A stretch of 64,000 nt of DNA, from assembly GCA_026986005.1 (NCBI GenBank), contig JALSPK010000209.1:1-64000 (forward strand), written 5' to 3'. Shown piece after piece: positions 4,691 through 40,640 of the stretch. The translations under genes and the position numbers were made by a program. This stretch comes from Saprospiraceae bacterium (GTDB lineage: Bacteria > Bacteroidota > Bacteroidia > Chitinophagales > Saprospiraceae). Each line of letters opens with the position of its first letter. The first letter of the stretch is position 1. Below the pieces are notes generated by a model. That model was not told the DNA's origin. It made no database searches and saw only the letters and a list, made by a program, of their open reading frames with translations.

Positions 4691-4699
4691 AAAAAATTA

Positions 4700-5605: not shown

Positions 5606-5636
5606 AATGTAAAGTTTTAAGTATGTTAAAAAAAAA

Positions 5637-7157
5637 TCAATTCTGCACGCATAGATTATTAGCTATCATCTCGTCAATCGGAATATAATACAATTTTTCC
5701 TTATCATCAAATTTGATAATCAAGTTATCATAACCTGAAGGCTTAGTTGCTAAATCAATTGTACCAATAGTCAAACCCTTGATATGGTAACCCCAATATG
5801 TCCTGTCAATGTCTATTTTATTTCTTGTCAAGTCAAAATACCTGTGTCCTTCAAATGCCAATTCAGCTCTACGTTCATCAAGTACGACACTTAAAATAGT
5901 CTTTCCGTTAGGCACATTATCAAATAAATGTCCATCCAAACCCCTATTTTCTCTAATAATATTCACATTTTCGAGTGCTAAGGATTCATTATTCTGATGA
6001 GCGTAAGCTTCTGCTTTATTGAGATACATCTCAGACAATCTAAACATCACTGGTGAACTTAAATTGGGATCTCCTCCCTGAAAACTAAATTTGGTTATAA
6101 AAAACATTTCCAAACCATTTTTCTTTTGAACTATACTCGGCTCTTTGAATACTGTATCTATATATGCAGTTCTAATATCTTCCGGATAGGTATTTATTAA
6201 GTTCAAATATTTGTATGTAGCAAATTCTTCTCCCCAGCCCGAATTGCCATCGCTATAAATCATGGAAGCGATTGAACCAAATTTTCCTCTGTTGTCCGAA
6301 GGAGTAAAAGCAACTGCCCAAATTGTTTCGCTTCGAGATAATGCATTGGCAAAATATGAGGGATAAGACTCACTTGTCTCAAGAGTAAATCTTCCGGAAT
6401 CTATTACCTTGTCAGCATACTCTATTGACTTATTATAATCTTCCATATACAGATATACTCTCGACAATAATGCCCAAGCCGCCTCTTTTGAAGCAAATTC
6501 TTTTCCTCTCGACTTATTCATCAACTCTGTTGATTGCATAGCGTCTTGCAATATTTGATCATAGGTTTCCTGTACCGTGGCTCTAGCTTTTTCAGCCTTT
6601 TCTGATGTGGATGTTCTCAAAATTATTCCCAAATTAGAATTTGGATCTCCTTGGTTGTATGGAAAAGCATAAAATTTTACGAGATTAAATTCAACAAATG
6701 CTCTTAAAAAATAATTCTCACCTAAAATATTAGATTCCTCATCTGACAAATTTCCTTTTGATTCCAAATATTGGATAACTGTATTTGCTCCATTAATAAT
6801 CTTGTAGGAAATATACCAAAAGAATCTTGAATTTGATTGGTTGGGAGAATGCGTATAGGTAAAACTATAATACAAAGGATCTTCAGTCTTTTGTCCACAA
6901 ACAATATCATCGGCAGCAAAATCCGACATCTGAAAATATTGCCTAAGATAACAATTGTTGTCATCTACTATTCCATTGAACTCCGCTCCGTCTTTTAATA
7001 ATGCATAATTGCCATTAGTGACATTCAATATACCGTCAGAAGAATTGGAAATAGAGCCGGTAGTCAATTGATCGGCAGGAAAAACATCCATGTCACTACA
7101 GGAATGAAATAATAATCCGCCAACTAAGATTGTGATAATGTATATTTTATTTTTCAT
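5637..7157 (-). CDS. susD: SusD/RagB-family outer-membrane glycan-binding lipoprotein
   Basis: The 506-residue product starts with a lipoprotein signal (LLFHSC, then SDMDVFP), as in SusD proteins. The N-terminal SusD-like helical region contains the familiar NFLRAFVEFNLVKFYAFPY-type segment (about residues 150-165), and the C-terminal RagB/SusD region ends with ENRGLDG, LDERRAELAFEGHRYFDLTR and KLYYIPIDE motifs. SusD forms the lid over the SusC channel and captures glycan at the cell surface. The start codon is 5 bases from the susC stop, so the two genes are tightly coupled. The recognised motifs leave little doubt about the family; the substrate is inferred only from the neighbouring sugar enzymes. 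Confidence 0.95.
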   Translation of the reverse strand: MKNKIYIITILVGGLLFHSCSDMDVFPADQLTTGSISNSSDGILNVTNGNYALLKDGAEFNGIVDDNNCYLRQYFQMSDFAADDIVCGQKTEDPLYYSFTYTHSPNQSNSRFFWYISYKIINGANTVIQYLESKGNLSDEESNILGENYFLRAFVEFNLVKFYAFPYNQGDPNSNLGIILRTSTSEKAEKARATVQETYDQILQDAMQSTELMNKSRGKEFASKEAAWALLSRVYLYMEDYNKSIEYADKVIDSGRFTLETSESYPSYFANALSRSETIWAVAFTPSDNRGKFGSIASMIYSDGNSGWGEEFATYKYLNLINTYPEDIRTAYIDTVFKEPSIVQKKNGLEMFFITKFSFQGGDPNLSSPVMFRLSEMYLNKAEAYAHQNNESLALENVNIIRENRGLDGHLFDNVPNGKTILSVVLDERRAELAFEGHRYFDLTRNKIDIDRTYWGYHIKGLTIGTIDLATKPSGYDNLIIKFDDKEKLYYIPIDEMIANNLCVQN

Positions 7158-7161
7158 CGTA

Positions 7162-22556: not shown

Positions 22557-23585
22557 CTATTTTAATAAATCTACCGCAATCCAAAGTAAAAATATATCAT
22601 ATATTGGTTCTTTACCTAGAAGGTAGTATTTCTTTCCAAACAAATTTACCGGTATCCCAATAAAATTCAGAAAATTCCATGTTGATTTTGCTCCTTTAAT
22701 ATTTAAGGTCGCCATAGCCTTAGAGTTCATTATCATTGCAACACTTCCAAATCCAAATAAAATTGGACCAGAATCTATATCTTCAGAGCTGTCATTCTCT
22801 AAATATTCTTTAGTAAAAGAAATACCAATAAACTTTTTTATGAACAAAGGTTTATATTTACGAAAATTTTCTTCAGCTAAATTTTCATTTATATTGGCTA
22901 AAAAGTACGTGATTAAAGCTTGTGACGAACCTCTGATTTCCGAAGGAATTTCACCACAATGATTTATTAATTTTTTGTCTGATTTTGATTTAGTCCATAT
23001 TTTCTCAAGCCATAGTTTCTTTAATTCTTTATTCTTTGAATTTAGTGATGCTATACAAATAAGATTGTCTGCTGGCCAAACTGAATTAGAATATGTTTCT
23101 AATATACGAATTGAATCTCTTTGAACTTCAATAATTTTATTTGAAATTTCATTATATAGATTTATAAATGTATTTTTCCTTGCACTTCTTTTAAAAACCT
23201 CACTTTCAATATACTTTTTTAAAGTAAAATTTGTCCATCCATTATAAAAAGCCCCATATTCAAGAGGTAATTCTTTCGTGAAATTAGTTTTTGCTTCTTG
23301 TGATGTTGTTCTTAGAATAGCATCTTCAATAAGATCTATATCAACTGATTCACATTTTTTAGAATATTCAATTAGTGATAATGCAAAAATCAAATTCCCA
23401 AATAATTCTCCTTCCGGAAACCTACTTTGAAGTTTTTCTCCTAATCCATTTTCAAATTCATTACTTAAGTATGCAATTTGATTTTCAATGCTTCTTATTA
23501 ATAAAAAATTCACATGTGGTGTAATTAGATTAATTAGTGAGATAAATAAAACAATAGATATCAAAATTTTAATTATTTTTTTCAT
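22557..23585 (-). CDS. Membrane-anchored protein of unknown function
   Basis: The 342-residue product has one N-terminal membrane segment (about residues 4-26), and the rest is probably periplasmic. Distinct motifs are LEYGAFYNGWTNFTLKKY (about 99-116), VWPADNLICIASL (about 168-180), IRGSSQALITYFL (about 216-228) and DIDSGPILFGFGSVAMI (about 268-284), followed by a terminal hydrophobic segment (IYDIFLLWIAVDLL). The spacing of Trp/Asp/Gly motifs suggests an alpha/alpha-barrel fold like that of some glycan-active enzymes, but I do not know a named family. It lies on the opposite strand to the exopolysaccharide genes, about 680 bases away, so a shared role is only a guess. Confidence 0.6.
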   Translation of the reverse strand: MKKIIKILISIVLFISLINLITPHVNFLLIRSIENQIAYLSNEFENGLGEKLQSRFPEGELFGNLIFALSLIEYSKKCESVDIDLIEDAILRTTSQEAKTNFTKELPLEYGAFYNGWTNFTLKKYIESEVFKRSARKNTFINLYNEISNKIIEVQRDSIRILETYSNSVWPADNLICIASLNSKNKELKKLWLEKIWTKSKSDKKLINHCGEIPSEIRGSSQALITYFLANINENLAEENFRKYKPLFIKKFIGISFTKEYLENDSSEDIDSGPILFGFGSVAMIMNSKAMATLNIKGAKSTWNFLNFIGIPVNLFGKKYYLLGKEPIYDIFLLWIAVDLLK

Positions 23586-24264: not shown

Positions 24265-25344
24265 ATGAAAACTAAAAACATTATATTATTAACTCTGCTG
24301 ATTATACTTTTAATCATAGGTTACTTTTATATCCAATCAGAAAATAGCTATTCAGTAAAAATATGTAAATGGAAAGATGATAAAGCAGCTGCGATTTCAA
24401 TTTCTTTTGATGATGCATCATATGTACAATACAAATACGCATTGCCCGTACTGGAAGATCTTGGTTTTAAAGCAAGTTTTGGCTTGGTAGGAGAATGGAC
24501 TAAAGAAACTCCAAGTTATTCAGCCGAACCGGGAATATTCGAAATCAAGAAAATGGGGTGGAATGAAATCAGAGAAATATCTAAAAAAGGGCATGAAATA
24601 TGTGCCCATGGTTACAAACACGAAAGGTATAGTAGAAGAATATCAAGTGATTCACTGATTCATCAAATGAAAAAAATTAAAAATCTTATCGAAAAAAATA
24701 TAGGTAGTGAATGCTACACTCTACATTACCCATACTCTCAGACATCTGATACAATAACTTATGCTGCAAAGAAATCCGGATTTTTATTCGCAAGATCAGG
24801 AGAAGAGGCTATAAACCCTTCTACACCAAAAAACATGCAACTTCTTGCGAGTAAGGCAATATACAACAATGAAGTACCTGCACTTAAAGAGTTCAAAAAT
24901 TTTCTTAAAGAAGCTAGTGGAGGATGGCTGATTTTAATGTATCACCACCTATTTCCTGATGACTCCAAAGAAATGGGGATATTGAGATATCACAAAATAA
25001 GAAACACTTACTCTCTACTACCATCTACCTTCAAATCTCAAATGAACTTAATCAAAAACACTAATTATTGGGTAGCTCCCATATCTACTGTAGGTAAATA
25101 TATTGAAGAGAGAGACAATCTAAAAATCGAATCCAAAAAATTTTTCAATATCATAAATATCAAAACAAAAATCAATCTCGACACATCTATTTATGACGAA
25201 AGAGTAACACTAAAAATAGGACTCCCTTGGAAAAAAGCTAGTGTTTTTTTTGAAGACAAAAAGTATATTTTTGATGTAGTAGAGGGGTATATTTTATTGA
25301 ACATTTTACCGGGAGACAACATAATGATAAAGAAAATAATATAA
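24265..25344 (+). CDS. Membrane-anchored NodB-type polysaccharide deacetylase
   Basis: The 359-residue product has one N-terminal membrane segment (about 5-22) and a NodB/CE4 domain facing the periplasm. The metal triad is intact: SISFDDAS (Asp49-Asp50) and HGYKH (His115, His119). The third motif reads HYPYSQ instead of RxPY, and the late His motif is MYHHLFP. After the NodB domain, a beta-rich tail (about 275-359, ending in ILLNILPGDNIMIKKII) recurs at the end of the protein encoded at 28356-31490. It probably removes acetyl groups from a newly made hexosamine polymer, as the N-terminal half of PgaB does. It overlaps the glycosyltransferase gene by one base (TAATG). Confidence 0.88.
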   Translation: MKTKNIILLTLLIILLIIGYFYIQSENSYSVKICKWKDDKAAAISISFDDASYVQYKYALPVLEDLGFKASFGLVGEWTKETPSYSAEPGIFEIKKMGWNEIREISKKGHEICAHGYKHERYSRRISSDSLIHQMKKIKNLIEKNIGSECYTLHYPYSQTSDTITYAAKKSGFLFARSGEEAINPSTPKNMQLLASKAIYNNEVPALKEFKNFLKEASGGWLILMYHHLFPDDSKEMGILRYHKIRNTYSLLPSTFKSQMNLIKNTNYWVAPISTVGKYIEERDNLKIESKKFFNIINIKTKINLDTSIYDERVTLKIGLPWKKASVFFEDKKYIFDVVEGYILLNILPGDNIMIKKII

Positions 25345-26798
25345 TGTACTATACACTTAGAATCATAGAAAAAGTTTTAATAATATATTTCACTTTATAT
25401 TTGGTGGTTGATTTACTTTTGTACTTTAATGCATTATATGATTTTTTCAAGCACAAAAAGGAAGACAGTAAAAATTATAATTTTAAAGAACACCCTATTT
25501 CAATAGTTGTACCTGCTTACAATGAGGAAGTATCAATTATCACTTGCATTGACAATTTACTGAGATTGGATTACCCCAATTATGAAATTGTGTTGGTCAA
25601 TGACGGTTCGAAAGACAAAACAATGGAAGTTTTAAAATCAAATTATTCAATACTTGAATTGGAAAGACATGATCACGAGAAATTTAAATCAAATCCTATT
25701 AAAAATGTATACAAGCTACCTGACACAAACTTGATAATCTTGGACAAAGAAAATGGTGGCAAAGCTGATGCAATAAATGCCGGTATAAATTATGCTACCG
25801 GAGACTATATATGTACAATTGATGCGGATTCGGTTTTGGATCCTGATGCATTACAAGAAGTGATAAAGCCATTCATAAATAACCCTAACACTATCGTATC
25901 CGGAGGTCAGCTAGCAGTAGCAAATGATGTTACTATCACAAATAACAGAGTAATCAGTTCTAGAGTTCCACGAAATATTTGGGTTCAGTGGCAAATCATA
26001 GAATACATAAAATCATTTATGATATCGCGAATTGGTTTGAGCAAAGTAAACGCATTACTAATAATGTCAGGAGCTTTTTCTCTATTTAAAAAAAGTGATT
26101 TACAAAAAGTAGGAGGATTTCTTTCTAAAGTAAATAATCATCCATATATCATTCAAAATATTGGTGACGGAAGACAAACTGTGTGTGAGGATATGGAAAT
26201 AGTTGTAAGATTGTGGAAATACAAAATTGATAACAAAATAAAAGCACAAGCGGTTTTTCTTCCCGAACCAGTTTGTTGGACAGAAGTACCTGATAGTGGT
26301 AAAAATCTTTACAGACAGAGAGCAAGATGGCATCAAGGGCTAGCTGAAACTTTAACAATATACAAGGATACTATATTAGAACCAAAATATGGTGTTACCG
26401 GGATGCTTGCACTTCCGTATTATTTCTTCTTCGAACTACTGTCACCTGTCATAAAGCTGTTTTCTTTAGCATTTATCTTTGCTGCGGGTTATTATGGAGT
26501 ATTCAATACCAAGTGGGTGATATTATTACTTATAAGTATACTACTTACTACAGCAATTATCATGAGTTCGATTACCGTAGTGCTCGAAAGATGGAGTCAA
26601 AGACACACTAAAACGACAAGAAATGCCTTGAGATATAAAACTTTTACTGATTGGTTGTGGCTTGTTTTTTCCGGAATCACAGCAGAATTTACTTATTCCT
26701 TTTTTAAAATAATTGCACAGATTAGAGGAATTAGTGATTATTTAAAGAAAAAAAATGAATGGAATAAATTTGAAAGAAAAGGATTTAAAAATAAATAA
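25344..26798 (+). CDS. Processive family 2 glycosyltransferase, PgaC/IcaA-like polysaccharide synthase
   Basis: The 484-residue product has an N-terminal membrane segment (about 8-30), a GT2 catalytic domain, and about three to four membrane segments after residue 345. The processive synthase motifs are all present: IVVPAYNEE, LVNDGSKDKT, TIDADSVLDPDAL (DAD), VCEDMEIVVRL (ED) and RQRARWHQG (Q-x-x-R-W). This fits PgaC/IcaA, HasA or NodC-type enzymes that polymerise a UDP-sugar and push the chain across the inner membrane. The neighbouring deacetylase and TPR-barrel genes favour a PNAG-like hexosamine polymer. No PgaD-like small partner is visible. Confidence 0.9.
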   Translation: MYYTLRIIEKVLIIYFTLYLVVDLLLYFNALYDFFKHKKEDSKNYNFKEHPISIVVPAYNEEVSIITCIDNLLRLDYPNYEIVLVNDGSKDKTMEVLKSNYSILELERHDHEKFKSNPIKNVYKLPDTNLIILDKENGGKADAINAGINYATGDYICTIDADSVLDPDALQEVIKPFINNPNTIVSGGQLAVANDVTITNNRVISSRVPRNIWVQWQIIEYIKSFMISRIGLSKVNALLIMSGAFSLFKKSDLQKVGGFLSKVNNHPYIIQNIGDGRQTVCEDMEIVVRLWKYKIDNKIKAQAVFLPEPVCWTEVPDSGKNLYRQRARWHQGLAETLTIYKDTILEPKYGVTGMLALPYYFFFELLSPVIKLFSLAFIFAAGYYGVFNTKWVILLLISILLTTAIIMSSITVVLERWSQRHTKTTRNALRYKTFTDWLWLVFSGITAEFTYSFFKIIAQIRGISDYLKKKNEWNKFERKGFKNK

Positions 26799-26813
26799 AA
26801 TTAGAATAAAGCT

Positions 26814-28352
26814 ATGAAATCAAAAAAATCATTATTTGGAGTATTACTTGTCATTTATACAACATTTGGTTTTGCCCAAAGTTTGACTAAATTAAAAACG
26901 GATGCTTCACAAGCGGCAAGTATCCATGAATATAAAACCGCAATCAAGCTCTATAAAAAAGCACTAAGTATCGATCCAAATGATTCTGAAGCACACATGG
27001 CATTGGGTCAATTATATTACGATTCGGAAAATTACACAAAAGCAGTTGTTTTTTTTAATCGGGTATATATGAAAAACAGAAAAAATGAGGATCTAATCTA
27101 TAAGATAGGGAATAGTTATCTTTTATCTGGAAAATTGTATGGCGCTGTCAATTTTTATTTGGCTGCTTTAGAACAATTGCCAAAAAACATTAAGATATAT
27201 TTCCAACTTGCAAAAGCTTATAGTTGGAAGGGGCAAATGAAAAAAGCTATTAAAATATATCAAAAAATATTGGAAATTGACAATACATATGCTGAAGCTT
27301 GGCAAGGAATTGGGAAGATGTATTATTGGATGGGTAAACCATACTCTTCTGCAACAAATTACAAAAAAGCAATCGGTTTTGACCCATCAAACATAGTACT
27401 TAAAACAGAATATGAAAAAGTTAAGAAAAGTATGACTTTTCAAACTTTTGGCAAATGGGATATCGTCAATGAGAATGAAAGACATTATGATATACATGCC
27501 ATCACTCAAAGATATGGCGTATCAAAAATCATAAATGACGACTTAAAACTAAGTGGAAATTTATTAATTGACCATTCCTATAAATATCTAAATCAAAAAG
27601 AATCGGACAAGATTAAGAAAATTTACAATAACACCTTTTTTAGCTTGGACTATTCTCTTGGAAATAGTGATTTTAAAGTATATTCGGGATACTCCTTTTC
27701 TGATAAACAAATGTCTTCATATGGTCTGGAATGGAAATACACATTTAGAGTGAAGTCCATGGAGTTCTCAAATAACCTCACAGGAGGATATGACTATTTT
27801 TATTATTGGAATAATGTAGGTCAACATGCGATTAGCGATCAATTTTACATAAAATACAATAAATTCAAACTATCTCTTAATGTAAAAAGCGGAATAATCG
27901 ACAGTCTAACGGTTTTTGATGAAATAAAAGATGAAGTGAGAGTAGATTTCAATCATAGTTTAGCTGGAGGAGCAACGTTGTCATATGAATTGATGTCAAA
28001 ACCAAAAGTAAGAGTTTCTGCGCATTATTCTTATTTAGACTATAAATACAAATCAAAGCTTTATTATACTCCTTCGAGCAGAAATCTATATGGTTTATCA
28101 ACATCCGTTTTTTATCCTACCAACAACTTCTATTTTTATGGTAGTTTTGGATACAATATTGGTTCAGAGTATTATTTTGACATTAAAAATGATAAGCTAA
28201 CTGCTATCTTTATAGATGTTGATAATTGGGCGGCAAATGCAGAAATAGGATATGAGTTGAATACAATATCATTTTCTTTAGGAGCTAGCAGGTTCTTCAA
28301 TCCGTATTATGCAAATTTTGATGCATATTTTACTTCAAGATTATATTTTTAA
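26814..28352 (+). CDS. TPR plus outer-membrane beta-barrel protein, PgaA/YaiO-like exporter
   Basis: The 512-residue product has a signal peptide (ending near FGFAQ, residue 22), then about five TPR units (roughly 24-195: YKTAIKLYKKALSIDPNDSEAHMAL and similar), then a beta-barrel region (about 210-512) of alternating aromatic strands ending in SRLYF with a terminal Phe, as expected for BAM substrates. The same order, periplasmic TPRs followed by a barrel, is found in PgaA, which guides partly deacetylated polymer out of the cell; the barrel also resembles the YaiO family. It lies 15 bases after the synthase gene. Export of the polymer is the most likely role. Confidence 0.82.
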   Translation: MKSKKSLFGVLLVIYTTFGFAQSLTKLKTDASQAASIHEYKTAIKLYKKALSIDPNDSEAHMALGQLYYDSENYTKAVVFFNRVYMKNRKNEDLIYKIGNSYLLSGKLYGAVNFYLAALEQLPKNIKIYFQLAKAYSWKGQMKKAIKIYQKILEIDNTYAEAWQGIGKMYYWMGKPYSSATNYKKAIGFDPSNIVLKTEYEKVKKSMTFQTFGKWDIVNENERHYDIHAITQRYGVSKIINDDLKLSGNLLIDHSYKYLNQKESDKIKKIYNNTFFSLDYSLGNSDFKVYSGYSFSDKQMSSYGLEWKYTFRVKSMEFSNNLTGGYDYFYYWNNVGQHAISDQFYIKYNKFKLSLNVKSGIIDSLTVFDEIKDEVRVDFNHSLAGGATLSYELMSKPKVRVSAHYSYLDYKYKSKLYYTPSSRNLYGLSTSVFYPTNNFYFYGSFGYNIGSEYYFDIKNDKLTAIFIDVDNWAANAEIGYELNTISFSLGASRFFNPYYANFDAYFTSRLYF

Positions 28353-28355
28353 GCT

Positions 28356-31300
28356 TTGAAGGGGAAAATAATAGTCATATTATCTTTGATAGCAATGCTG
28401 GTTTATACAGTATTCAAGATGATGAAATACGAAGAATCCATTCGTGAGGAACGAATAATTACTAAATATGTCGAGGATGAAAGCAAAGCTTTATTTGAGA
28501 AATCATCTTCAGAAAAACTTGAAAAATATGCAAAACAATCTGAATATAAATTCACAACCGGTAAGGTGTATTTTCAAAAACAGATTATTAACGAAAGAGA
28601 AGTTGTAGACTTCGAGGACTTTTTTTTAAAGGGAGTTAATCTGGGCGTAGCTGTTCCGGGAAAGTTTCCGGCAGAGTTCTCCCTTACATTTGACAAATAC
28701 TTGGAATGGATAGAGATGATAGGTTTGATGAATGCTAATACAATCAGAGTATACACAATACTTCCACCTGAATTCTACAAAGCATTATCGTTTTATAATC
28801 TATACAATGCAGATAATCCAGTATATTTAATGCAAGGAGTTTGGGCTAAAGTTCCAAAATCAGAAGATTATTATGATCCTGAATACACCCGCCAATTTCA
28901 AAAAGAAATAATTGATGTGATAGATGTAATACATGGAAAAGCTGTATTAAAAGAAAAACCGGGTAAAGCTCATGGAGTATATTCTACTGATGTATCAAAA
29001 TACATTGTCGGTATATTACTAGGAAGAGAATGGGAACCCAAAAGTGCATTTGCTACTATAATGAAACATAAACAAAATCATTTTTTGGGTGACTTTATAA
29101 CTATTCAAAATGGTAACCCAATGGAAGTTTGGTTAGCACAACAATTGGATTTTGCTGCAACTTATGAAACGCAAACATACAAATGGCAGCATCCTTTATC
29201 TTTTGTAAATTGGTTGCCACTTGACCCGATGTATCACAATACCGAATTTATTGAAAGCAAAAAAGTAAAAGAATATGACAATGATTTAATAAGCATTGAT
29301 TTTATTAAATTCAATGCTACCAATCTTTTGAAAACCGGCATTTTTGCAGCTTACCATGCTTATCCGTATTATCCTGATTATATTTACTTGCAAGAAAATT
29401 ATGCAAATACTATTAACAATAAAGGTAAAAAAGATAACTATTTAGGATATCTAAAAGATTTGAAAAATCATACGCAAGGAATGCCTTTAGTAATAGCTGA
29501 ATATGGACTGCCTTCAAGTAGAGGCATCAGTCACTTTACCCCTTCGGGATTCAATCAGGGAGGACATTCAGAAGCACAACAGGCTGAATTGTCCTTGACG
29601 CTTACACAAGATATTTTTGAATCTGATTGTGCAGGTGCTATATATTTTGAATGGGCTGATGAGTGGTTCAAACACAATTGGCTTGTTATGGACTTTGAAT
29701 TACCATTTAACAATAGAAAAATATGGCACAATATGGAAAATCCTGAACAAAATTTTGGAATTCTTGCCTTGGAAAATGACAAAACAATCCCGTCAAACAA
29801 GAAAAATGCACTAACAAATTCAATACCATTTAACACAAATGCTAATCCATCATATTTTTATATTACCGCCGAATTACCTAATTTCGACTTTAAAAAGAAT
29901 AATCTCTTTATAGCCATAGACACATATGACAAAAATAAGGGAGATCACAAATTACCTATTTCCAAATATGAATTTGAACATGGATTTGAATTTTTTCTTA
30001 GTTTTAATTCGGATAATAAAGCAAAAATACAAGTGGATGAACCATATTCGGTATATACTGATATTTATAATGATTTCAGACCCATATATGCATCAAAAGA
30101 AAACAAAAACGGAATATTCATAGATCAACTGATGCTGGTAAACAGAGGTAGATCCACCCTTTTAGGAATAAAAACAGACTCCATAATCAACAATCGCAGC
30201 ATTCTTAAAAGCGGTGATTTTACCATACCCTCAACATCAAATGCAGATTGGAATTGGAATAAATCCTCTCATAAATTCAATCTCCGCCTTGATTGGCATT
30301 TGATCAATGTTTCTGATCCATCGCATCGTTTTGTCCTTGATGATAAAGAAGGAACACGAGCTATCGAATACACAAAAACAGATGGTTTCAATATGTATTT
30401 TTTCATCACAGACAAGACAAATAATATAATAGACCAATATCCTGAAAAGAAACCGTACTTCACAACATGGGAAGAATGGGATGCCCCAAAATATACCCAA
30501 AGATTGAAACCATTATACAATACATTGAAAAAATACTTTTCTTCATTAAAAATAAATAAAAGTTTGAAATCAAATGGACATAAAGAAAATTTTATAATAA
30601 CTGATTTCATGCATGATAAAAAAGCAGCTATAAGTATCACGTTTGACAATTCAGGATACTCACAGTACAAGTACGCATTGCCGGAAATAAGCAAATATAA
30701 AATAAATGCAGACTTTAGTATATCACCTAAATTTATGAATGACGTTGCCGGTTTCTCTGACTATGACGAAGGGGTCTTGATAAACAGATTGGGAGTTGAT
30801 GAATATGGGGAAATAAAAGCTCATGGCAATGAAATAGCACTTCAGATTAGCGAGAATGAAAGCATTGATGGCTTTGAACTTAACAATTCCTTTAAAACTA
30901 TCCATTGTCATTATAACAAGACAAGAGAAAAGCCGATTAATGGATTTACATTTATCAGAGGTGAAAGTCTCAAAAAAACCGATAGTTTTACTTATGATGG
31001 GATATCTTACTCCACAATAAAAACAAATATATCCCAAATTGTACTAGACAGTATCTTGAAAGAAAAAATCGGGGAGTGGACAATATTTAATTATCACCAT
31101 ATTTACAAGGATACGCTTGAAGTATGGAAATACGATAAAAAAATAATAGATAACTATTTTATAGAGTTAGAAAAATTTAAGAAACAAATAAGACTTATAA
31201 GAAATTCAGACTATTGGATCGATACAGAGTCTCATATTTCTCAATATATTAAAGAACGTAGTGCAGGTGAAATAATAACCAAAAAATTCGGAAATATAAC

Positions 31301-31490
31301 TTTCTTAACAATTAAGACAAGTTTAGACCAAGATAAATACACTCAACCCCTGACATTAAAATACTTTACGGATTATGAAATGATTAAAATATCTGGTTCC
31401 ATATCTAATGGTATTTATAGAAATTATTCCGGAAGTATAATGTTCGACATATTGCCCAACGATGAGATAAAAATAGAAGTCTTTGAATAA
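28356..31490 (+). CDS. Clan-A glycosidase-like protein fused to a degenerate NodB deacetylase domain
   Basis: The 1044-residue product starts at TTG, 3 bases after the previous stop; an ATG start at residue 14 would cut into the single membrane anchor (about 4-22). Residues ~85-470 look like a TIM-barrel glycosidase, with acid/base and nucleophile candidates in GREWEP (Glu225) and VIAEYGLPS (Glu382), and FEWADEW near 431. A beta-rich middle part follows (~500-720). Residues ~745-970 are clearly homologous to the deacetylase at 24265 (SITFDNSGYSQYKYALPE matches SISFDDASYVQYKYALP), but the second Asp is Asn and the HxxxH motif has become HGNEI, so metal binding is probably lost. The tail (~975-1044) matches that of the deacetylase. 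The two-activity layout recalls PgaB, with the domains in reverse order. Confidence 0.8.
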   Translation: MKGKIIVILSLIAMLVYTVFKMMKYEESIREERIITKYVEDESKALFEKSSSEKLEKYAKQSEYKFTTGKVYFQKQIINEREVVDFEDFFLKGVNLGVAVPGKFPAEFSLTFDKYLEWIEMIGLMNANTIRVYTILPPEFYKALSFYNLYNADNPVYLMQGVWAKVPKSEDYYDPEYTRQFQKEIIDVIDVIHGKAVLKEKPGKAHGVYSTDVSKYIVGILLGREWEPKSAFATIMKHKQNHFLGDFITIQNGNPMEVWLAQQLDFAATYETQTYKWQHPLSFVNWLPLDPMYHNTEFIESKKVKEYDNDLISIDFIKFNATNLLKTGIFAAYHAYPYYPDYIYLQENYANTINNKGKKDNYLGYLKDLKNHTQGMPLVIAEYGLPSSRGISHFTPSGFNQGGHSEAQQAELSLTLTQDIFESDCAGAIYFEWADEWFKHNWLVMDFELPFNNRKIWHNMENPEQNFGILALENDKTIPSNKKNALTNSIPFNTNANPSYFYITAELPNFDFKKNNLFIAIDTYDKNKGDHKLPISKYEFEHGFEFFLSFNSDNKAKIQVDEPYSVYTDIYNDFRPIYASKENKNGIFIDQLMLVNRGRSTLLGIKTDSIINNRSILKSGDFTIPSTSNADWNWNKSSHKFNLRLDWHLINVSDPSHRFVLDDKEGTRAIEYTKTDGFNMYFFITDKTNNIIDQYPEKKPYFTTWEEWDAPKYTQRLKPLYNTLKKYFSSLKINKSLKSNGHKENFIITDFMHDKKAAISITFDNSGYSQYKYALPEISKYKINADFSISPKFMNDVAGFSDYDEGVLINRLGVDEYGEIKAHGNEIALQISENESIDGFELNNSFKTIHCHYNKTREKPINGFTFIRGESLKKTDSFTYDGISYSTIKTNISQIVLDSILKEKIGEWTIFNYHHIYKDTLEVWKYDKKIIDNYFIELEKFKKQIRLIRNSDYWIDTESHISQYIKERSAGEIITKKFGNITFLTIKTSLDQDKYTQPLTLKYFTDYEMIKISGSISNGIYRNYSGSIMFDILPNDEIKIEVFE

Positions 31491-31510
31491 TACATCAAAC
31501 CTAAATTATT

Positions 31511-33343
31511 ATGAAAAACATATACGCTCTTATAGCAATATTTATACTATCGACTTTTATGTCCCAGTGCTATAAAAATGAAACCAAAAGCAGAAAGGAA
31601 AGCAGTTTTGAAAATATTTCTCAATTACCGAATGCATTATTTGTCACTACAGGAATCAACTTTGAAAAACAAGATCCTGCTCTTTCTGAGGCTGTTGTAA
31701 TAGCAATTCAGAGTCTAAACAAAAGGGGAATAAAAGTCAGATTGGAACCAAGAGATGTCCTTTATGAAAAAGAAAAATTATCAAATTTCAGTATAATTAT
31801 ACTATCCTCTTCTTTAGGAATACATGACGCTGACAGAAAATACTCATTGACTTATATGACAGATCATGAATTGAATAATCTAAAAGATTTTGTCAATGCC
31901 GGTGGTGTATTAATAGCAGGAGACAATATTGGGCGAAACTATTTTGACGGTTCTGACAGAATAAAAAAATTCAAGCAATTGACGCCATCCAATTATCCAT
32001 TATCTGAAGTATTTGGAGCAATATTGGAAGAAAAGAATATGAAAGGTTATAGGATAATAGGTAAAAAAGACGCTTTTAAAGACGAATCCCTAAACACATT
32101 TGAATATAATATATGGACATTGGTACCAGACAAGGTAATCTCAAGAGATTTAAAGGTATTGGCATCATGGGAAAATGGAAACAAATCTTATCCCGCCATA
32201 ACTAAAAACAAATATGGAAATGGTACAGGCTATCTACTAGCTTCTTCCGAATTTCTACAACCGGCAAACAACGGAGGATATAGTGGAATAAAACAGATAC
32301 AGAAATTTTACAACTATGTCGTTGATGATTATCTTCACAAAAACAAAATCAACCTTGAATTAAATCCATGGCCAAACGGATATGACCAAGCATTTGCAAT
32401 AAGCTTTAATAGTGGAGGAACATTGAAAAATTACAAATTCGTAACCAACAAAATGAAAAAAAATAAAATAAAACCTATATTTTTTGTGAATGGAAAAACA
32501 GCATCCGATATCAAAAAGTATTTAGTAGAAAATAATATATCAATAGCTTCAAGTGGATACCGATTTCGCAATTATAAAAATATAAATTATTCATTAGCTG
32601 TTAATGATATTCTTAGAAATGAAAATGAATGGGAAAGACACTTTTCGGGCTTTAGATTTCCATATACAACTCCCAATTACTTTGGATTGTTGGCAGCAGA
32701 TTTGCACAATTACAAATACGAATCCAGCATAAGTGTCAACAATATTGATTTTATTCACGGTAGCAATTTCCCCCATAACCTCGTGATTTCTCATCACAAG
32801 TTTTACAAAAGTAGCAACATGCTTGAAATTGCTCCCACTTATCATGATGACTTCTTTTTCCTAGGTAGCCTTGACGGGGCAGAATACAGATCGGAGGAAC
32901 AAATGAAAAAAGACATTATGTTGTACAATCAATATCTACAAAACTTTTGGGAAATTGCGACCTTACCAAATAGTGGACTGATGCTTATTCTTGCTCATCC
33001 CAATCTAATAGGAAAAAATAATAACTCTTTCAAACCGATAAAAAATATCATAAACACAGCCAAAAAGTCAAACACATGGATTACTGATATAGAAACTGTG
33101 GCAAACTACACCAATGATATACAAAACCTAAGATTTTTCATCGATAATAGCGGTGAAAGAACAAAAGTACTTATCAAATCAAAAAATGACAAAGTAATAA
33201 AAGGAGTAACCTTGATATCCAAGTTAAAACCGGTCAGTGCTTCTTGCTTAAAAGGAAATATTTCAATAAAGAAAAACAAAAGTACTTATCTAATTATATT
33301 TGATGCTTTTAATAATCAAGAATTAGAAATTACTAGCCACTAA
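31511..33343 (+). CDS. Lipoprotein with GATase-like domain and degenerate deacetylase domain
   Basis: The 610-residue product has a lipoprotein signal (FMSQC, Cys20). Residues ~40-275 resemble a class I glutamine-amidotransferase-like fold used in some glycan-active or trehalose-utilisation-type proteins (FVNAGGVLIAGDNIG), without an obvious catalytic Cys. Residues ~290-530 align by motif order with NodB domains: AISFNSGG instead of TFDDG, SSGYRF instead of HGYxH, then an intact RFPYT (about 380) and LILAHPNL (about 491). It therefore probably binds rather than deacetylates glycan. It follows the glycosidase-fusion gene by 20 bases and completes the five-gene set; its last 11 bases overlap the convergent gene. 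Confidence 0.72.
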   Translation: MKNIYALIAIFILSTFMSQCYKNETKSRKESSFENISQLPNALFVTTGINFEKQDPALSEAVVIAIQSLNKRGIKVRLEPRDVLYEKEKLSNFSIIILSSSLGIHDADRKYSLTYMTDHELNNLKDFVNAGGVLIAGDNIGRNYFDGSDRIKKFKQLTPSNYPLSEVFGAILEEKNMKGYRIIGKKDAFKDESLNTFEYNIWTLVPDKVISRDLKVLASWENGNKSYPAITKNKYGNGTGYLLASSEFLQPANNGGYSGIKQIQKFYNYVVDDYLHKNKINLELNPWPNGYDQAFAISFNSGGTLKNYKFVTNKMKKNKIKPIFFVNGKTASDIKKYLVENNISIASSGYRFRNYKNINYSLAVNDILRNENEWERHFSGFRFPYTTPNYFGLLAADLHNYKYESSISVNNIDFIHGSNFPHNLVISHHKFYKSSNMLEIAPTYHDDFFFLGSLDGAEYRSEEQMKKDIMLYNQYLQNFWEIATLPNSGLMLILAHPNLIGKNNNSFKPIKNIINTAKKSNTWITDIETVANYTNDIQNLRFFIDNSGERTKVLIKSKNDKVIKGVTLISKLKPVSASCLKGNISIKKNKSTYLIIFDAFNNQELEITSH

Positions 33344-34955
33344 TCTTAACAATCTTTTTGGTAAAAATACTGTTTCTTGTTTTGATTGTAATAAAGTATA
33401 TCCCGGCAGGTATTTCTTCAAGACTAAGATTCAATTTTGAAGTTTTCTTATCAACAATTATTTTCTTTACTTTTCTACCAAACATATCATAGATTGCAAT
33501 TAGCTCGGGATTCCTATTATCACTAAAAGTTAAAGTTATATTGTTAGAAAAAGGGATTGGAAATACATTTACAAAATTAGTATTTGTAAAGTTACCATTG
33601 ATATTTTCCGTACTTGTAGTACAAGAACCTTGAGTCCAAGACTTCACACCATTTCTATACTTAGCAATGCATTCGTTGGTGTAGGTGATACTATCACAGC
33701 CGCAGACAGGATCGTAGATGTCAGAACAATACTTGAATGTATCAATTAAAAACTTGTTGATACATGTAGTATCATCAATACATTCTCCATTATACCATCG
33801 AGTAATACCTGCATGATATTTAGCATAGCATTCATTCGGATAAGTAATAGTGTCACATCCACAAACAGGGTCATAGTCAAAAGAAGGATTACATTCAATT
33901 GAAATATCAACTTGCTGCTCTTCATAACAAGCAGCTCTTTCATAACCCATTACTCCATGTTTATATCTGGCAATACAAGCATTTTTGTATAGCTTACCAT
34001 CACAACCTTTTACTGGCAAATAAATTTCATAACACTCTACACTTAAATCAATTTGTGTTGAATCAATACAATTACAAACGCCATCTGTCCAACTTGCTAC
34101 TCCAAAATAATACTGTGCGACAACATAATTTGTATATGTGATAGAGTCACAGCCACATACCGGGTCATAAAAATAAAACAAAATAGGATTGCGATTCTCA
34201 TAATAAACACTATCACTAAAAATAAGTGTAGAGTCAATACAAGGACATTCTCCCGGGTTTGTGTATTGAACACCATAGTAATTTTCAGCTATGCATTGGT
34301 TCGTATAAGTAATTCTGTCACATCCACATACCGGATCATAAATATCACTACATAAAACCGAAGTATCTATTTCATATTCATCTATACAGGAACACTCTCT
34401 ATTCTTCCAATCTATTACTCCACCATATAAAACAGCTTCATATTTATTTCTGTAATTCCTATTATCACATCCACATACCTGATCATCAGGAAACATACTT
34501 AAATCTATTGTCGTATCAATATATTTTTGCTCAAAGCATGGTATAGAATTACGACTATATGACGTTACCCCTCCTTTTCTTACCGCCATCTCAGGAGATA
34601 AATATACTTTGCCATCGCATCCTCTCACCGGATCCGGATACAGAATTTTTGAGATGTAATAAAAAATATTTTTTGTTGTATCTCTAAAATTTGCAGCTAT
34701 ACAACTACAAGGAGTATTTTCAAACTTAGTTACGCCTGATGCTGATGCACAATATAAATTATTGTAAGTAATGGAATCACATCCACATACCGGCTGAAAA
34801 TCATATTCGTCAAAACGTGAATATTGAATACAGTTATATCTTATACGAATTGAATCAATTTGCAAACTATCAATACAATCATCTTGAGATAAACTTATAC
34901 TAATAAAAATAAAAATTAATATTACAGTATTTAATATTTTGAGACAATTATTCAT
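33333..34955 (-). CDS. T9SS-secreted protein with eight Kazal-like repeats
   Basis: The 540-residue product has a signal peptide (ISISLSQDD, cut near residue 24), then eight units of about 48-58 residues, each with the core DPVCGCDSITYTNECIAKY or a variant, then a type A T9SS sorting domain (VFPIPFSNNITLTF to KIVKISG). The core matches Kazal-type serine protease inhibitors. Several units lack some Kazal cysteines (for example DPVRGCDGKVYLSPEMAV and LPVKGCDGKLYKNACI), so not all can form the normal disulfide set. It may inhibit extracellular proteases or serve as a structural repeat protein. It ends convergently with the lipoprotein gene, overlapping it by 11 bases. Confidence 0.8.
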   Translation of the reverse strand: MNNCLKILNTVILIFIFISISLSQDDCIDSLQIDSIRIRYNCIQYSRFDEYDFQPVCGCDSITYNNLYCASASGVTKFENTPCSCIAANFRDTTKNIFYYISKILYPDPVRGCDGKVYLSPEMAVRKGGVTSYSRNSIPCFEQKYIDTTIDLSMFPDDQVCGCDNRNYRNKYEAVLYGGVIDWKNRECSCIDEYEIDTSVLCSDIYDPVCGCDRITYTNQCIAENYYGVQYTNPGECPCIDSTLIFSDSVYYENRNPILFYFYDPVCGCDSITYTNYVVAQYYFGVASWTDGVCNCIDSTQIDLSVECYEIYLPVKGCDGKLYKNACIARYKHGVMGYERAACYEEQQVDISIECNPSFDYDPVCGCDTITYPNECYAKYHAGITRWYNGECIDDTTCINKFLIDTFKYCSDIYDPVCGCDSITYTNECIAKYRNGVKSWTQGSCTTSTENINGNFTNTNFVNVFPIPFSNNITLTFSDNRNPELIAIYDMFGRKVKKIIVDKKTSKLNLSLEEIPAGIYFITIKTRNSIFTKKIVKISG

Positions 34956-37906: not shown

Positions 37907-40573
37907 TTATTTAAGGATTTCCAATTTTCCTGTAAAGACTATCATTTTATCTAATACGATTTGTACAGAATATATACCATTTTTAAGCTTAAATTCTACT
38001 CTTCTTTGGACTTCATTTTTATTCAATTCCAATACTAAGATTTTTTGTCCAATAGAATTGAATATTTCAACTGTTCCTGTTTCAAATTCTTGATTCAAGT
38101 TAATATCAAAATACTCTTTTGCAGGATTTGGAAATAGTACAGCTATATCATGATTATAATTGATAGTACTTCTTTCTTCAATTGTATCACACAGTTCGGT
38201 ATCATTGTACTCTCTAAAATCTTTACCTAATAGTGATCTTGCAATACCAACTCCCTTGCCTCCAGAGGAAGGACATTGTCCGGCGATTGATTCCAACATA
38301 GCAATTTCTTCAGTTGACCAATCACTTCCTGACTTAAATGCTCTAATCCTCAAATTCAAAACTTCTTTGAAATTAGTTTCATATATCTTAGAAGTATTTA
38401 TATTACTTAATACATTTTGAAGTGAGTCAAGTTGAGAAATTGAACTAATTCTCTCCAAAGTTTTATCAATAGAAAACAGTTCTCCTAGAGGAGTATTAAT
38501 TTTATCATTCCAAAACTGTGATGCATTTTCTACTTCATTTAACAATTCCGGATTGTGATATAATGCTGTTAATATATTGAACTGTACATCAAATAATGAA
38601 CCGGCACAGTTTTCTGATTCCTCACTACAGTCTCTTCCTAAATACAAATCAGTCATCGCACCTCTCCAATAATCGTTAAAATCATTTCCTGACACCTCTC
38701 TGGGTGGCTCATATTCACATAATAAACAATAAGTAAAGTCTTCTTTATCTGAAATTTGTCCATTTACAATTTGAATGTTCCCTTCATAAGGATTTGGAAT
38801 TAAATCAATGCCTTGATTCATTGTCCCAGTATTTGTAATAGTGAAGACCGGTCCATTTGGGGCATCCAATTCCAAAGCTGTAGGAATATCATCTTTCCAT
38901 CTGTTGCCATTTTTGTATTGATCTCCAATAATTCCAGGTAAGCCAAAATCTCCAATTTTAACTCCTGCATGAATTATGTTCTTCATACTATTGGCTACCA
39001 AATCTAATGGATCGTTGTCATTAATAATTAAAAAGCTATTTGGAATATCTTTAAGAACATTACATTTTAATACACCAAATGGTGAATTATTACAAAATAT
39101 TCCAAAATCTATATTTCCCGAAGCTAAACCAGCACCAAAAATGTTGTTGTGAGCAACTCTATATCCTTCACAGTCAATTTGAGATATAGACCACTGCCAA
39201 ATTGGTGGATTTGTGAGATAATGCTCTATGTAATTATTTTCAATTGTATAATTTTCAGATAAACTTATTCTAAATCCATCTCCATATGTTTCAATGTTAT
39301 TTTCTGAAAACAGAAAACCATTGCAAATATTATTAGTGAAACAAAGTCCTAAATCAGTATTATTAAAGATATTGTCAGAGACTCTGCCTTCTAGTCCAAT
39401 ACAGTCTTTAATTTCAAATCCCTTGGTATTAAATGTTTCATTATCTGTTATTTCAACAATATTACTATTTGCAACATAAAAGCTTGATGCATTATTATCT
39501 TCATCACTCCAATAGAATTTATTATATGAAACATATACTTCATTACCATTAGTAAATATATATGGGAGATCTACAGTAGGGTGACTAAAATCACAATCTG
39601 TAATTGTAAGATGATTTAGTCCATCTGCTTTTATTGAAGCATGACTAAATTCACAATTTGTAATATAAACTTCATCTTCCCTACTCAAATCAGAATTAAT
39701 ATTTATTTCACTATCTACCAATAGTATAAAATCAGAATTGACAATTTCAATATTTGTTTGATTTGTTCCACTAAAATCATTAAAGTCAATTTGAATACAG
39801 GCTTTGTTTTCTTTGCCATTATAATTCTCAAAGTGATTTTGAGCTTTCGCAGGATTTCCAATTGTGAAATTATCTACATTTTTGAGTTTAAAGGCAATTC
39901 CAATATCATCATTGTAGGCATAAGGAGGACCAATAGTCCCACCTATGAAAGTATTTCCAAAGATATCAGTTGTAACATCTGTTATACCATCAGTAACAAC
40001 TACATATTTATTATTTTCAAAAATGTTGTTTTCGAGAGTTACCGTTTGCCCACTTCCTCCTGTCATATAAAAAACTCTATAAAAATTATAAATATTAGAA
40101 TTTTTTATCGTCACAACACCTCCTCCTTCCATATAAATTCCTCTCATTAGTTTATTACATCCATGTAGTTGTGCACCATCAATTGTTAAATGTCTATTTC
40201 CTGAAATAAATATTTTTCCATTTTGATCCCCAATAATATCACTATGTGAAGCAAAGTCATAATCAATATCAATAGCAAGCTCACTAGTTAAAACAACGTA
40301 CTGAGCTGTTGTCTTGGCTTGATTTGCAGGTAATAACAGCCCCTGTGAAATAGCTGTTGTAACAGACATATAGGAATCAATAACTTTGTAATCATGAACC
40401 CCATCAGTACACTCTTGTTGTGCATTTAGTATTAAAGTTGATCCGAAAATGATAATAAACAAAAGCATTACAATCTTTAAATGTTTAAGAATAAAACTGT
40501 CTTGTATTGCACTCTTTGAGCGACTTGTTAAAATATTGGTTGCGACTTGCGACTTTTTTCTAATATTTTTCAT
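37907..40573 (-). CDS. T9SS-secreted right-handed beta-helix protein
   Basis: From the ATG at 40573 the product has 888 residues; a later start at 40468 (MLLFIIIFGSTLILNAQQ) would give a more normal signal peptide, and the first possible ATG is at 40633. The body from about residue 60 to 580 is made of short repeats such as VTIKNSNIYNF, VTLENNIFENN and LTITDCDFSH, the pattern of a parallel beta-helix found in pectate-lyase-like folds and adhesins. A type A T9SS sorting domain closes the protein (LFPNPAKEYFDI to GKLEILK). No catalytic residues can be named. It is upstream of the two beta-propeller genes. Confidence 0.75.
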   Translation of the reverse strand: MKNIRKKSQVATNILTSRSKSAIQDSFILKHLKIVMLLFIIIFGSTLILNAQQECTDGVHDYKVIDSYMSVTTAISQGLLLPANQAKTTAQYVVLTSELAIDIDYDFASHSDIIGDQNGKIFISGNRHLTIDGAQLHGCNKLMRGIYMEGGGVVTIKNSNIYNFYRVFYMTGGSGQTVTLENNIFENNKYVVVTDGITDVTTDIFGNTFIGGTIGPPYAYNDDIGIAFKLKNVDNFTIGNPAKAQNHFENYNGKENKACIQIDFNDFSGTNQTNIEIVNSDFILLVDSEININSDLSREDEVYITNCEFSHASIKADGLNHLTITDCDFSHPTVDLPYIFTNGNEVYVSYNKFYWSDEDNNASSFYVANSNIVEITDNETFNTKGFEIKDCIGLEGRVSDNIFNNTDLGLCFTNNICNGFLFSENNIETYGDGFRISLSENYTIENNYIEHYLTNPPIWQWSISQIDCEGYRVAHNNIFGAGLASGNIDFGIFCNNSPFGVLKCNVLKDIPNSFLIINDNDPLDLVANSMKNIIHAGVKIGDFGLPGIIGDQYKNGNRWKDDIPTALELDAPNGPVFTITNTGTMNQGIDLIPNPYEGNIQIVNGQISDKEDFTYCLLCEYEPPREVSGNDFNDYWRGAMTDLYLGRDCSEESENCAGSLFDVQFNILTALYHNPELLNEVENASQFWNDKINTPLGELFSIDKTLERISSISQLDSLQNVLSNINTSKIYETNFKEVLNLRIRAFKSGSDWSTEEIAMLESIAGQCPSSGGKGVGIARSLLGKDFREYNDTELCDTIEERSTINYNHDIAVLFPNPAKEYFDINLNQEFETGTVEIFNSIGQKILVLELNKNEVQRRVEFKLKNGIYSVQIVLDKMIVFTGKLEILK

Positions 40574-40640
40574 ATTATTATACGAGTTTGTAAAACTAAT
40601 AATAATTGTTTGAAAACACAAGTTTCTCCACATTTCTTAT

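What the first reader, a model, noticed from the sequence alone, without database searches (positions are those of the whole stretch)
24265..33343. PNAG-like exopolysaccharide locus with an unusual set of three deacetylase-type domains
Seen: five consecutive plus-strand genes encode a NodB deacetylase, a processive GT2 synthase (DAD, ED, QxxRW motifs), a TPR plus beta-barrel protein ending in Phe, a glycosidase fused to a degenerate NodB domain, and a GATase-like lipoprotein with another degenerate NodB domain. Known: PgaA (TPR-barrel), PgaB (deacetylase plus hydrolase), PgaC and PgaD make and export PNAG. Inference: this is a Bacteroidota synthase-dependent exopolysaccharide system in which PgaB's roles are split over three proteins, with one active deacetylase and two probable glycan-binding relatives. 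No PgaD-like protein is present.
Basis: partly seen in the sequence, partly recalled or inferred. Interest (0 to 1): 0.85.

Follow-up and report, generated by a model that had tools for sequence, protein, structure and literature searches.

The report
Polysaccharide export operon with inactive deacetylases
This is a five-gene bacterial machine that most likely builds, trims and exports a sugar polymer, in which two of its three deacetylase-type domains have lost the metal site needed for catalysis but have been kept, probably as polymer-handling parts.

Summary
The five genes are present as described and form a tight operon. PNAG membership is not supported: the GT2s form their own clade apart from PgaC/IcaA; the glycosidase has a clan GH-A-type barrel without a Pfam match, not GH153; the last protein has PelA/PelADA architecture. 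The three-deacetylase observation becomes a pattern. In 27 scored genomes the stand-alone NodB (P0001) and an intact NodB in the fusion never occur together: 11 have P0001 with a degenerate fusion, 7 an intact fusion without P0001, 9 neither. In the tree the fused active site was lost once. The last protein is degenerate in 26 of 27 loci yet keeps the R-x-P core of a substrate-side motif; an intact paralogue exists in 9 of the 11 P0001 genomes, not in the window's. I read it as a synthase-dependent exopolysaccharide system, hybrid in parts between Pga and Pel, with retained pseudo-deacetylases. Polymer identity is unknown; activity and binding are inferred, and drift towards loss remains a rival.

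The parts
24265..25344 (+). P0001: membrane-anchored (by sequence) NodB/CE4 deacetylase, intact metal site (FDD, HGYKH), plus small C-terminal domain homologous to the P0004 C-terminus
   Evidence: family profile finds PgaB/IcaB-type deacetylases among its PDB matches (4u10 1.3e-12 first; 5bu6, 3vus, 4wcj)
25344..26798 (+). P0002: processive-type GT2 synthase, DAD/ED/QxxRW
   Evidence: (PgaC_IcaA 127.5 bits, cut-off 422.3)
26814..28352 (+). P0003: signal peptide, TPR array (to about residue 205), then a C-terminal domain read as a beta-barrel ending in Phe
   Evidence: C-terminal part has no Pfam or NCBIfam match in 6 of 6 members given; barrel inferred from sequence, not modelled
28356..31490 (+). 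P0004: N-terminal membrane anchor (by sequence), clan GH-A-type TIM barrel, beta-rich middle, degenerate NodB, C-terminal beta domain
28608..29780 (+). GH domain of P0004 (about residues 85-475); candidate catalytic E225 or E227 (GREWEP) and E382 (AEYG)
   Evidence: R224, E225, E227, E382 identical in 23 of 23; fold match LaGH157 Z 28.6, rmsd 3.1, 311 aligned
30597..31265 (+). degenerate NodB domain of P0004 (about residues 748-970)
   Evidence: motifs; homologous to P0001 at 32% identity, E 5e-25
31511..33343 (+). P0005: likely lipoprotein with PelA/PelADA-like three-domain architecture, degenerate NodB that keeps GFRFPY and the late LxH motif
   Evidence: pLDDT 91.4; PelA 9cgy Z 17.5, rmsd 4.2, 467 aligned, model 28-610
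32366..33124 (+). degenerate NodB domain of P0005 (about residues 286-538)

Best explanation
A synthase-dependent exopolysaccharide machine. The GT2 polymerises an N-acetylated, probably beta-linked sugar and passes it through the inner membrane. P0001, anchored in that membrane, removes some acetyl groups in the periplasm. The GH of P0004 cuts chains, clearing stalled polymer or setting length. P0003's TPRs gather the partners and its barrel exports the chain. The two NodB-like domains without a metal site (P0004 C-terminus, P0005) bind and steer polymer or dock the TPR scaffold instead of deacetylating. In this lineage the intact deacetylases are separate proteins (P0001, and a P0005 paralogue that most relatives with P0001 have and the window lacks), while the fused copy lost catalysis once. 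Shown by sequence: genes, order, motifs, pattern across genomes, fold matches of models. Inferred: polymer chemistry, enzyme activity, membrane topology, binding role.
For: Order GT2-TPR-P0004-P0005 in 22 of 23 relatives in which all four are seen. Intact GT2 motifs. GH Glu residues identical in 23 of 23. Of 27 scored genomes: P0001 with degenerate fusion 11, intact fusion without P0001 7, neither 9, both intact 0. Degenerate fusion domains form one clade, 18 rows, 100/100. The downstream or sole P0005 is degenerate in 26 of 27 loci, in several phyla, but R382 and P384 are invariant in 28 of 28 aligned; an intact paralogue is present in 9 of 11 P0001 genomes. TPR domains of PgaA and PelB work with their deacetylase partners (PMC9384988, passages; PMC12022489, abstract).
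Against: The fused degenerate domain evolves fast (C-terminal to GH identity ratio 0.52, against 0.73 when intact), which also fits relaxed constraint on the way to loss. Nine genomes have neither intact family member, so deacetylation is not essential to the system, or another enzyme does it. The fused domain degenerated once, so the 27 genomes are not independent. In the P0005 tree intact and degenerate copies need two changes, so degeneracy there may have arisen twice.
Confidence: 0.65

Rival explanations
1. A true PNAG (pga/ica-type) system with PgaB redistributed over three proteins, as first proposed.
For: PgaC_IcaA is the best NCBIfam model for P0002 (127.5 bits) and the first PDB match of the P0001 family is a PgaB-type deacetylase; a TPR gene with a probable barrel is present.
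Against: GT2 is outside the PgaC/IcaA clade and far below the curated cut-off (422.3); no GH Pfam match in 23 of 23 P0004 members; P0005 is PelA-like; no PgaD in the operon; A3 against E. coli PgaA gives 3% probability.
Confidence: 0.12
2. The degenerate NodB domains are decaying leftovers without function, carried because they are fused to or operonic with needed parts.
For: The P0004 C-terminus is much less conserved than the GH part in the degenerate set, 33% against 63% mean identity; P0001 itself is missing in 16 of 27 genomes, 9 of them with a degenerate fusion.
Against: Degenerate P0005 is a separate gene kept in 26 of 27 loci across several phyla with invariant R382 and P384; no stop was seen inside any match listed in the genome searches with the GH profile.
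Confidence: 0.17
3. A system for another polymer handled mainly by the GH, for example a beta-1,3-linked or uronic glycan, where deacetylation is an optional addition.
For: Best GH fold match is GH157, solved in complex with laminaribiose and laminaritriose, next GH2 beta-galacturonidase and beta-glucuronidases; GH-only relatives without NodB have a GT2 close by in 3 of 8 loci read, and GH homologues stand beside HEAT and GT2 genes in Deinococcus and Planococcus; 9 of 27 loci lack an intact deacetylase of these families.
Against: Fold does not tell substrate; 18 of 27 genomes do hold an intact NodB of the P0001 type; no glycan was tested.
Confidence: 0.25

Closest known systems
Pga (PNAG) system, PgaABCD/IcaABC
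   Same: GT2 synthase, TPR exporter gene, PgaB/IcaB-type deacetylase, a hydrolase coupled to a deacetylase domain
   Different: GT2 in its own clade; hydrolase fold is clan GH-A-like, not GH153; domain order reversed (GH first, NodB last); no PgaD in the operon; extra PelA-like protein; two NodB domains degenerate
Pel system: PelA (CE21) and Bacillus cereus PelADA
   Same: P0005 has the same three-domain plan (mixed alpha/beta, CE, beta-rich) as PelADA and as PelA without its hydrolase; PelADA and P0005 both end at residue 610
   Different: No other Pel gene in the operon; P0005 lacks the metal residues and PelA's hydrolase domain
HEAT-repeat-associated GT2 loci (HEAT, GT2, in some records a response regulator or a YaiO-annotated barrel)
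   Same: Nearest GT2s by tblastn among plasmid records; GH homologue beside them in Deinococcus and Planococcus
   Different: No HEAT gene in the window operon; no NodB or PelA-like gene annotated beside them in the stretches seen; function unknown to me
BA3943 CE4 pseudoenzyme (PDB 7bkf)
   Same: A NodB fold described as pseudoenzyme (fold match Z 18.4 with P0005)
   Different: Context not examined; other family
Heparan sulfate N-deacetylase-N-sulfotransferase NDST1
   Same: Fold match to P0005 over model 40-540, Z 15.7
   Different: rmsd 11.4; human sulfotransferase fusion; no shared pathway implied

Membership tests
PNAG system (pga/ica) | GT2 belongs to the PgaC/IcaA family | tested here: not met
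   127.5 bits against cut-off 422.3; separate clade, PgaC+IcaA 99/92, own 21 rows 98/97 (long branches warned)
PNAG system (pga/ica) | PgaB-type CE4 deacetylase | tested here: inconclusive
   P0001 profile finds a PgaB structure first but TIGR03938 scores 40.7, cut-off 321.9
PNAG system (pga/ica) | GH153 hydrolase fused C-terminal to the deacetylase | tested here: not met
   no GH Pfam match in 23 of 23; GH lies N-terminal of the NodB domain; best fold rows GH157, GH2, GH5
PNAG system (pga/ica) | PgaA exporter with TPR and porin | tested here: inconclusive
   PGA_TPR_OMP 25.5 bits, cut-off 366.65, TPR part; hhalign with E. coli PgaA 3%
PNAG system (pga/ica) | PgaD in the operon (Gram-negative) | tested here: not met
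   only five sense-strand ORFs of 90 aa or more in the operon, none of this kind; rest of genome not searched
PNAG system (pga/ica) | polymer is beta-1,6-GlcNAc/GlcN | not testable with these tools
   needs chemistry
Pel system | PelA/PelADA three-domain deacetylase protein | tested here: inconclusive
   P0005 fold matches PelA 9cgy over 467 residues, Z 17.5, rmsd 4.2, 7% identity; no PelA among sequence-profile hits at E 0.01 or below; catalytic residues absent
Pel system | other pel genes in the operon | tested here: not met
   the five genes are NodB, GT2, TPR, GH-NodB and P0005 by Pfam/NCBIfam and fold; rest of genome not searched
CE4 active deacetylase (P0001) | D and two H metal site in MT1/MT2 | tested here: met
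   FDD and HGYxH in 9 of 9 P0001 proteins aligned
CE4 active deacetylase (P0004 C-terminus, P0005) | D and two H metal site | tested here: not met
   window P0004 FDN without HxxxH; P0005 FNS without His pair
GH157 | sequence membership | tested here: inconclusive
   fold only; GH profile finds four PDB chains at E up to 1, best 0.036, none a glycosidase
Cellulose or hyaluronan synthase | GT2 groups with BcsA or HAS | tested here: inconclusive
   CelA 42.5 bits, cut-off 699.1; BcsA used as outgroup on a very long branch; HAS not tested

The most novel reading that the evidence does not exclude
A distinct class of synthase-dependent polysaccharide secretion in which deacetylase folds became dedicated non-catalytic export parts: a nearly constant PelA-like pseudo-deacetylase and, in one Bacteroidota lineage, a second pseudo-deacetylase fused to a new family of glycosidase, with catalysis left to separate upstream genes; some lineages then dropped these active enzymes and kept both pseudo-domains.
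Probability: 0.35. Interest if true: 0.78.

Novelty: new variant of a known kind. Interest (0 to 1): 0.6.

Why it matters
In Pga and Pel systems it is hard to separate the catalytic from the structural role of the deacetylase. Here relatives seem to have done the separation: intact fused, split active plus inactive, and neither. That makes the question whether these folds are needed for export without catalysis directly testable. It would also add a glycosidase family without a Pfam model and an exopolysaccharide machine spread over several little-studied phyla.

Tried and rejected
PNAG membership: tested and rejected on GT2 clade, GH family and PgaD in the operon. P0003 as a PgaA or YaiO member: C-terminal parts of six members have no family match; hhalign with PgaA 3%, with a YaiO-annotated Mesorhizobium protein 98% but over the TPR part only, which shows only TPRs. 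A simple rule 'the fusion is degenerate only where P0001 exists' is false: nine genomes have neither. The hypergeometric value of 0.013 for the exclusion is not used as proof because the tree shows a single degeneration. Rooting the NodB tree with E. coli PgaB failed (end branch 3.78), so whether P0001 came from the fusion or the reverse is open. The GT2 tree has meeting long branches. NDST1 and GH42 matches of P0005 span the model but with rmsd 11-12 or few aligned residues. PelADA (9ZAU, named in the paper) is not among the 50 rows shown for P0005; absence there means nothing. Paper searches: among the papers listed I recognised none on this operon; searches listed none. The operon survey PMC7112194 (passages) reports divergent PgaB clades but the main text has no word beginning with Bacteroid; PMC12419801 (passages) gave nothing relevant. 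Most subscription papers and bioRxiv are not held.

Rows dropped before the 27-genome count: of 31 loci, ten were left out: L004, L005, L012, L018, L026 (cut, status not resolved) and L028, L029, L031, L032, L033 (the match to P0004 ends before the NodB part or the gene lacks it). L011 and L143 are cut upstream and rest on the genome-wide search. G698's P0005 is in two contig-end pieces, both degenerate. For the gene-order count, loci cut inside the operon (L004, L005, L008, L011, L012, L018, L026, L143) and the five without NodB were not counted.
Full report
What is there. Five plus-strand ORFs at 24265-33343 match the description. P0001 and P0002 share one base; later gaps are 15, 3 and 20 bases; P0005 overlaps the convergent next gene by 11 bases. 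P0004 begins at TTG; the first residue is a start in at least 90% of the 23 aligned. The window is contig 209 of a 3.8 Mb, 220-contig genome. A same-genus genome, G396, carries the locus on a contig of 28,993 bases, the length of the contig of L007, titled a Saprospiraceae MAG, so the window is probably Saprospiraceae (inference). Of five genomes of this genus examined, own included, two have the GH domain; of 100 relatives examined, own included, two.

Families. P0001 is a CE4 deacetylase; with the family profile its first PDB match is a PgaB-type deacetylase (4u10, 1.3e-12), with further PgaB entries and 4wcj (an IcaB; name recalled) below. P0002 is a GT2 with PgaC_IcaA as best NCBIfam model, far below that model's cut-off. 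P0003 has TPRs and a C-terminal domain without any family match; I call it a barrel from sequence and the terminal Phe only. P0004 has no Pfam or NCBIfam match; over 23 members the one widely recurrent Pfam match is the deacetylase domain, 13 of 23. P0005 shows a GATase-like (GH42M) and a weak NodB match.

Folds. The P0005 model (pLDDT 91.4) matches many CE4 structures in its NodB part (best Z 26.4), but PelA of Pseudomonas thermotolerans (9cgy) aligns the most residues, 467, over model 28-610, Z 17.5, rmsd 4.2, 7% identity. PelA's last three domains are a mixed alpha/beta domain, the deacetylase and a beta-rich domain (PMC12022489: abstract, part 1 of section 4, section 8). Bacillus cereus PelADA, crystallised as residues 27-610, has the same plan (PMC13254593: section 4 and passages). 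The P0004 model (pLDDT 81.2) matches LaGH157 best (Z 28.6, rmsd 3.1, 311 aligned), then GH2 enzymes near Z 25. Arg 224 and Glu 225, 227 and 382 are identical in 23 of 23. The GH profile finds no glycosidase among PDB sequences (best E 0.036).

Relatives. One scan with P0004 in genome contigs gave 31 loci. With five more loci fetched later, GT2, TPR gene, P0004 and P0005 can all be seen in 23 relatives with a NodB-bearing P0004; in 22 they stand in this order on one strand (two of these, L009 and L142, have a small ORF between P0004 and P0005), and in WOR-3 (L027) P0005 comes first. The record titles name Bacteroidota, Delongbacteria, Calditrichota, Electryonea and WOR-3 MAGs. L022, L025 and L030 have a gene between GT2 and TPR gene, L027 one before the GT2; the two scanned (L022, L027) have Big_7 Ig domains. 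The GH family was found in 9 of 395 genomes of the phylum draw, own included, 22 of 393 and 8 of 395 in two order draws, 3 of 39 and 1 of 5 in two further groups; apart from the first these draws were centred on genomes already known to have it. Many finds are GH-only proteins (about 840-900 aa); in the 8 GH-only loci read, 3 have a GT2 close by and none a P0005. GH homologues lie beside HEAT and GT2 genes in Deinococcus and Planococcus and some 4 kb from a GT2 in Paenibacillus.

The deacetylase pattern. I scored 27 genomes (21 loci, the window, and five loci). Group A, P0001 present and fused NodB degenerate: window, L003, L006, L007, L008, L010, L017, L019, L020, L023, L024 = 11; for L003 and L008 P0001 lies on another contig. 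Group B, no P0001 and fused NodB intact: L009, L016, L022, L025, L027, L030, L139 = 7. Group C, no P0001 and fused NodB degenerate: L011, L013, L014, L015, L021, L140, L141, L142, L143 = 9. Both intact: 0 of 27. For groups B and C absence of P0001 was checked in the whole held genome at E 1e-8; these genomes may be incomplete. L139 to L143 were found after the pattern had been noticed: one fits group B, four enlarged group C, so they did not break the exclusion but weakened the idea of simple complementation.

Trees. Degenerate fused domains form one clade (18 rows, 100/100); P0001 proteins form one side of a branch (11 rows, 97/98); intact fused domains of L016 and L009 (Bacteroidota) branch next to the degenerate clade, the four from other phyla form a clade of their own. 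L139 to L143 were not in this tree. So the fused active site was lost once, and P0001 was probably lost later in the L011/L013-L015 lineage and in L021. The root is unreliable. For P0005 (38 rows, quick tree, SH-aLRT only), 24 degenerate Bacteroidota copies form a clade (98) beside the clade of 10 intact copies (99); three degenerate copies from other phyla lie with the intact L027. The tree needs two changes, so degeneracy is old and may have arisen twice. Intact P0005 paralogues exist in 9 of 11 group A genomes: directly upstream of P0001 in seven (L003 by L089, L007, L008 by L090, L010, L017, L020, L024) and on other contigs in the genomes of L006 and L023; none was found in the window's genome or that of L019. 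No group B or C genome has a second P0005 besides the pieces of G698. R382 and P384 of the MT3 region are invariant in 28 of 28 P0005 proteins, and G380, F381 and F383 nearly so; the late LxH motif is kept in the rows that reach it.

GT2 placement. PgaC and IcaA pair (99/92) apart from the 21 GT2s of this operon type (98/97); twelve other GT2s, several with HEAT neighbours, group loosely (92/80). The program warns of long branches, so I claim only that the GT2 is not inside PgaC/IcaA. Among plasmid records the best tblastn hits reach 284 bits, the best IcaA listed 130.

Mechanism. The most likely reading is synthesis by the GT2, partial deacetylation by P0001, cutting by the GH, gathering by the TPRs and export by P0003, with the two inactive NodB domains as binding or docking parts. 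PgaA's TPR domain acts as such a scaffold for PgaB (PMC9384988, passages), and PgaB's hydrolase cleaves deacetylated, not fully acetylated, polymer (PMC5933820, passages). In B. cereus, PelADA mutated in MT1 or MT2 gives no detectable Pel (PMC13254593, passages), whereas here nine loci have no intact member of these families: either another enzyme serves, or this system does not need deacetylation. This is the most informative difference from known systems. Against the reading: the fused degenerate domain changes fast (mean identity 33% against 63% in the GH part of the same 17 proteins; the 6 intact ones 35% against 49%), which drift would also give.

Verdict. Real operon, correctly read as exopolysaccharide type with one intact and two degenerate deacetylase domains; not a PNAG system by membership; a new variant that mixes Pga-like and Pel-like parts.

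Noticed in passing
window 33333-34955 (-): 540-residue protein with several Kazal-type inhibitor repeats and a Por_Secre_tail sorting domain, convergent with the operon.
   Followed up: partly
window 37907-40633 (-): Right-handed beta-helix protein with Por_Secre_tail.
   Followed up: partly
window 22557-23585 (-): 342-residue protein without a convincing family match upstream of the operon.
   Followed up: no
L080, L082, L087: GH-only relative near a GT2, with a response regulator (Pfam-confirmed in L080, the one scanned) and a HEAT-like protein (Pfam HEAT_2 in 1 of 3 scanned).
   Followed up: partly
L096 (Planococcus plasmid) 2390-9825: GH homologue with HEAT and GT2 genes beside genes annotated CotH kinase, polyphosphate polymerase domain and DUF4956.
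   Followed up: no
L022 7486-8442, L027 2234-3151: Ig-repeat (Big_7) proteins beside the GT2 in non-Bacteroidota loci.
   Followed up: partly
L091, L178 (G506): One MAG holds two further intact P0005 copies on other contigs, suggesting a second locus or mixed strains.
   Followed up: no
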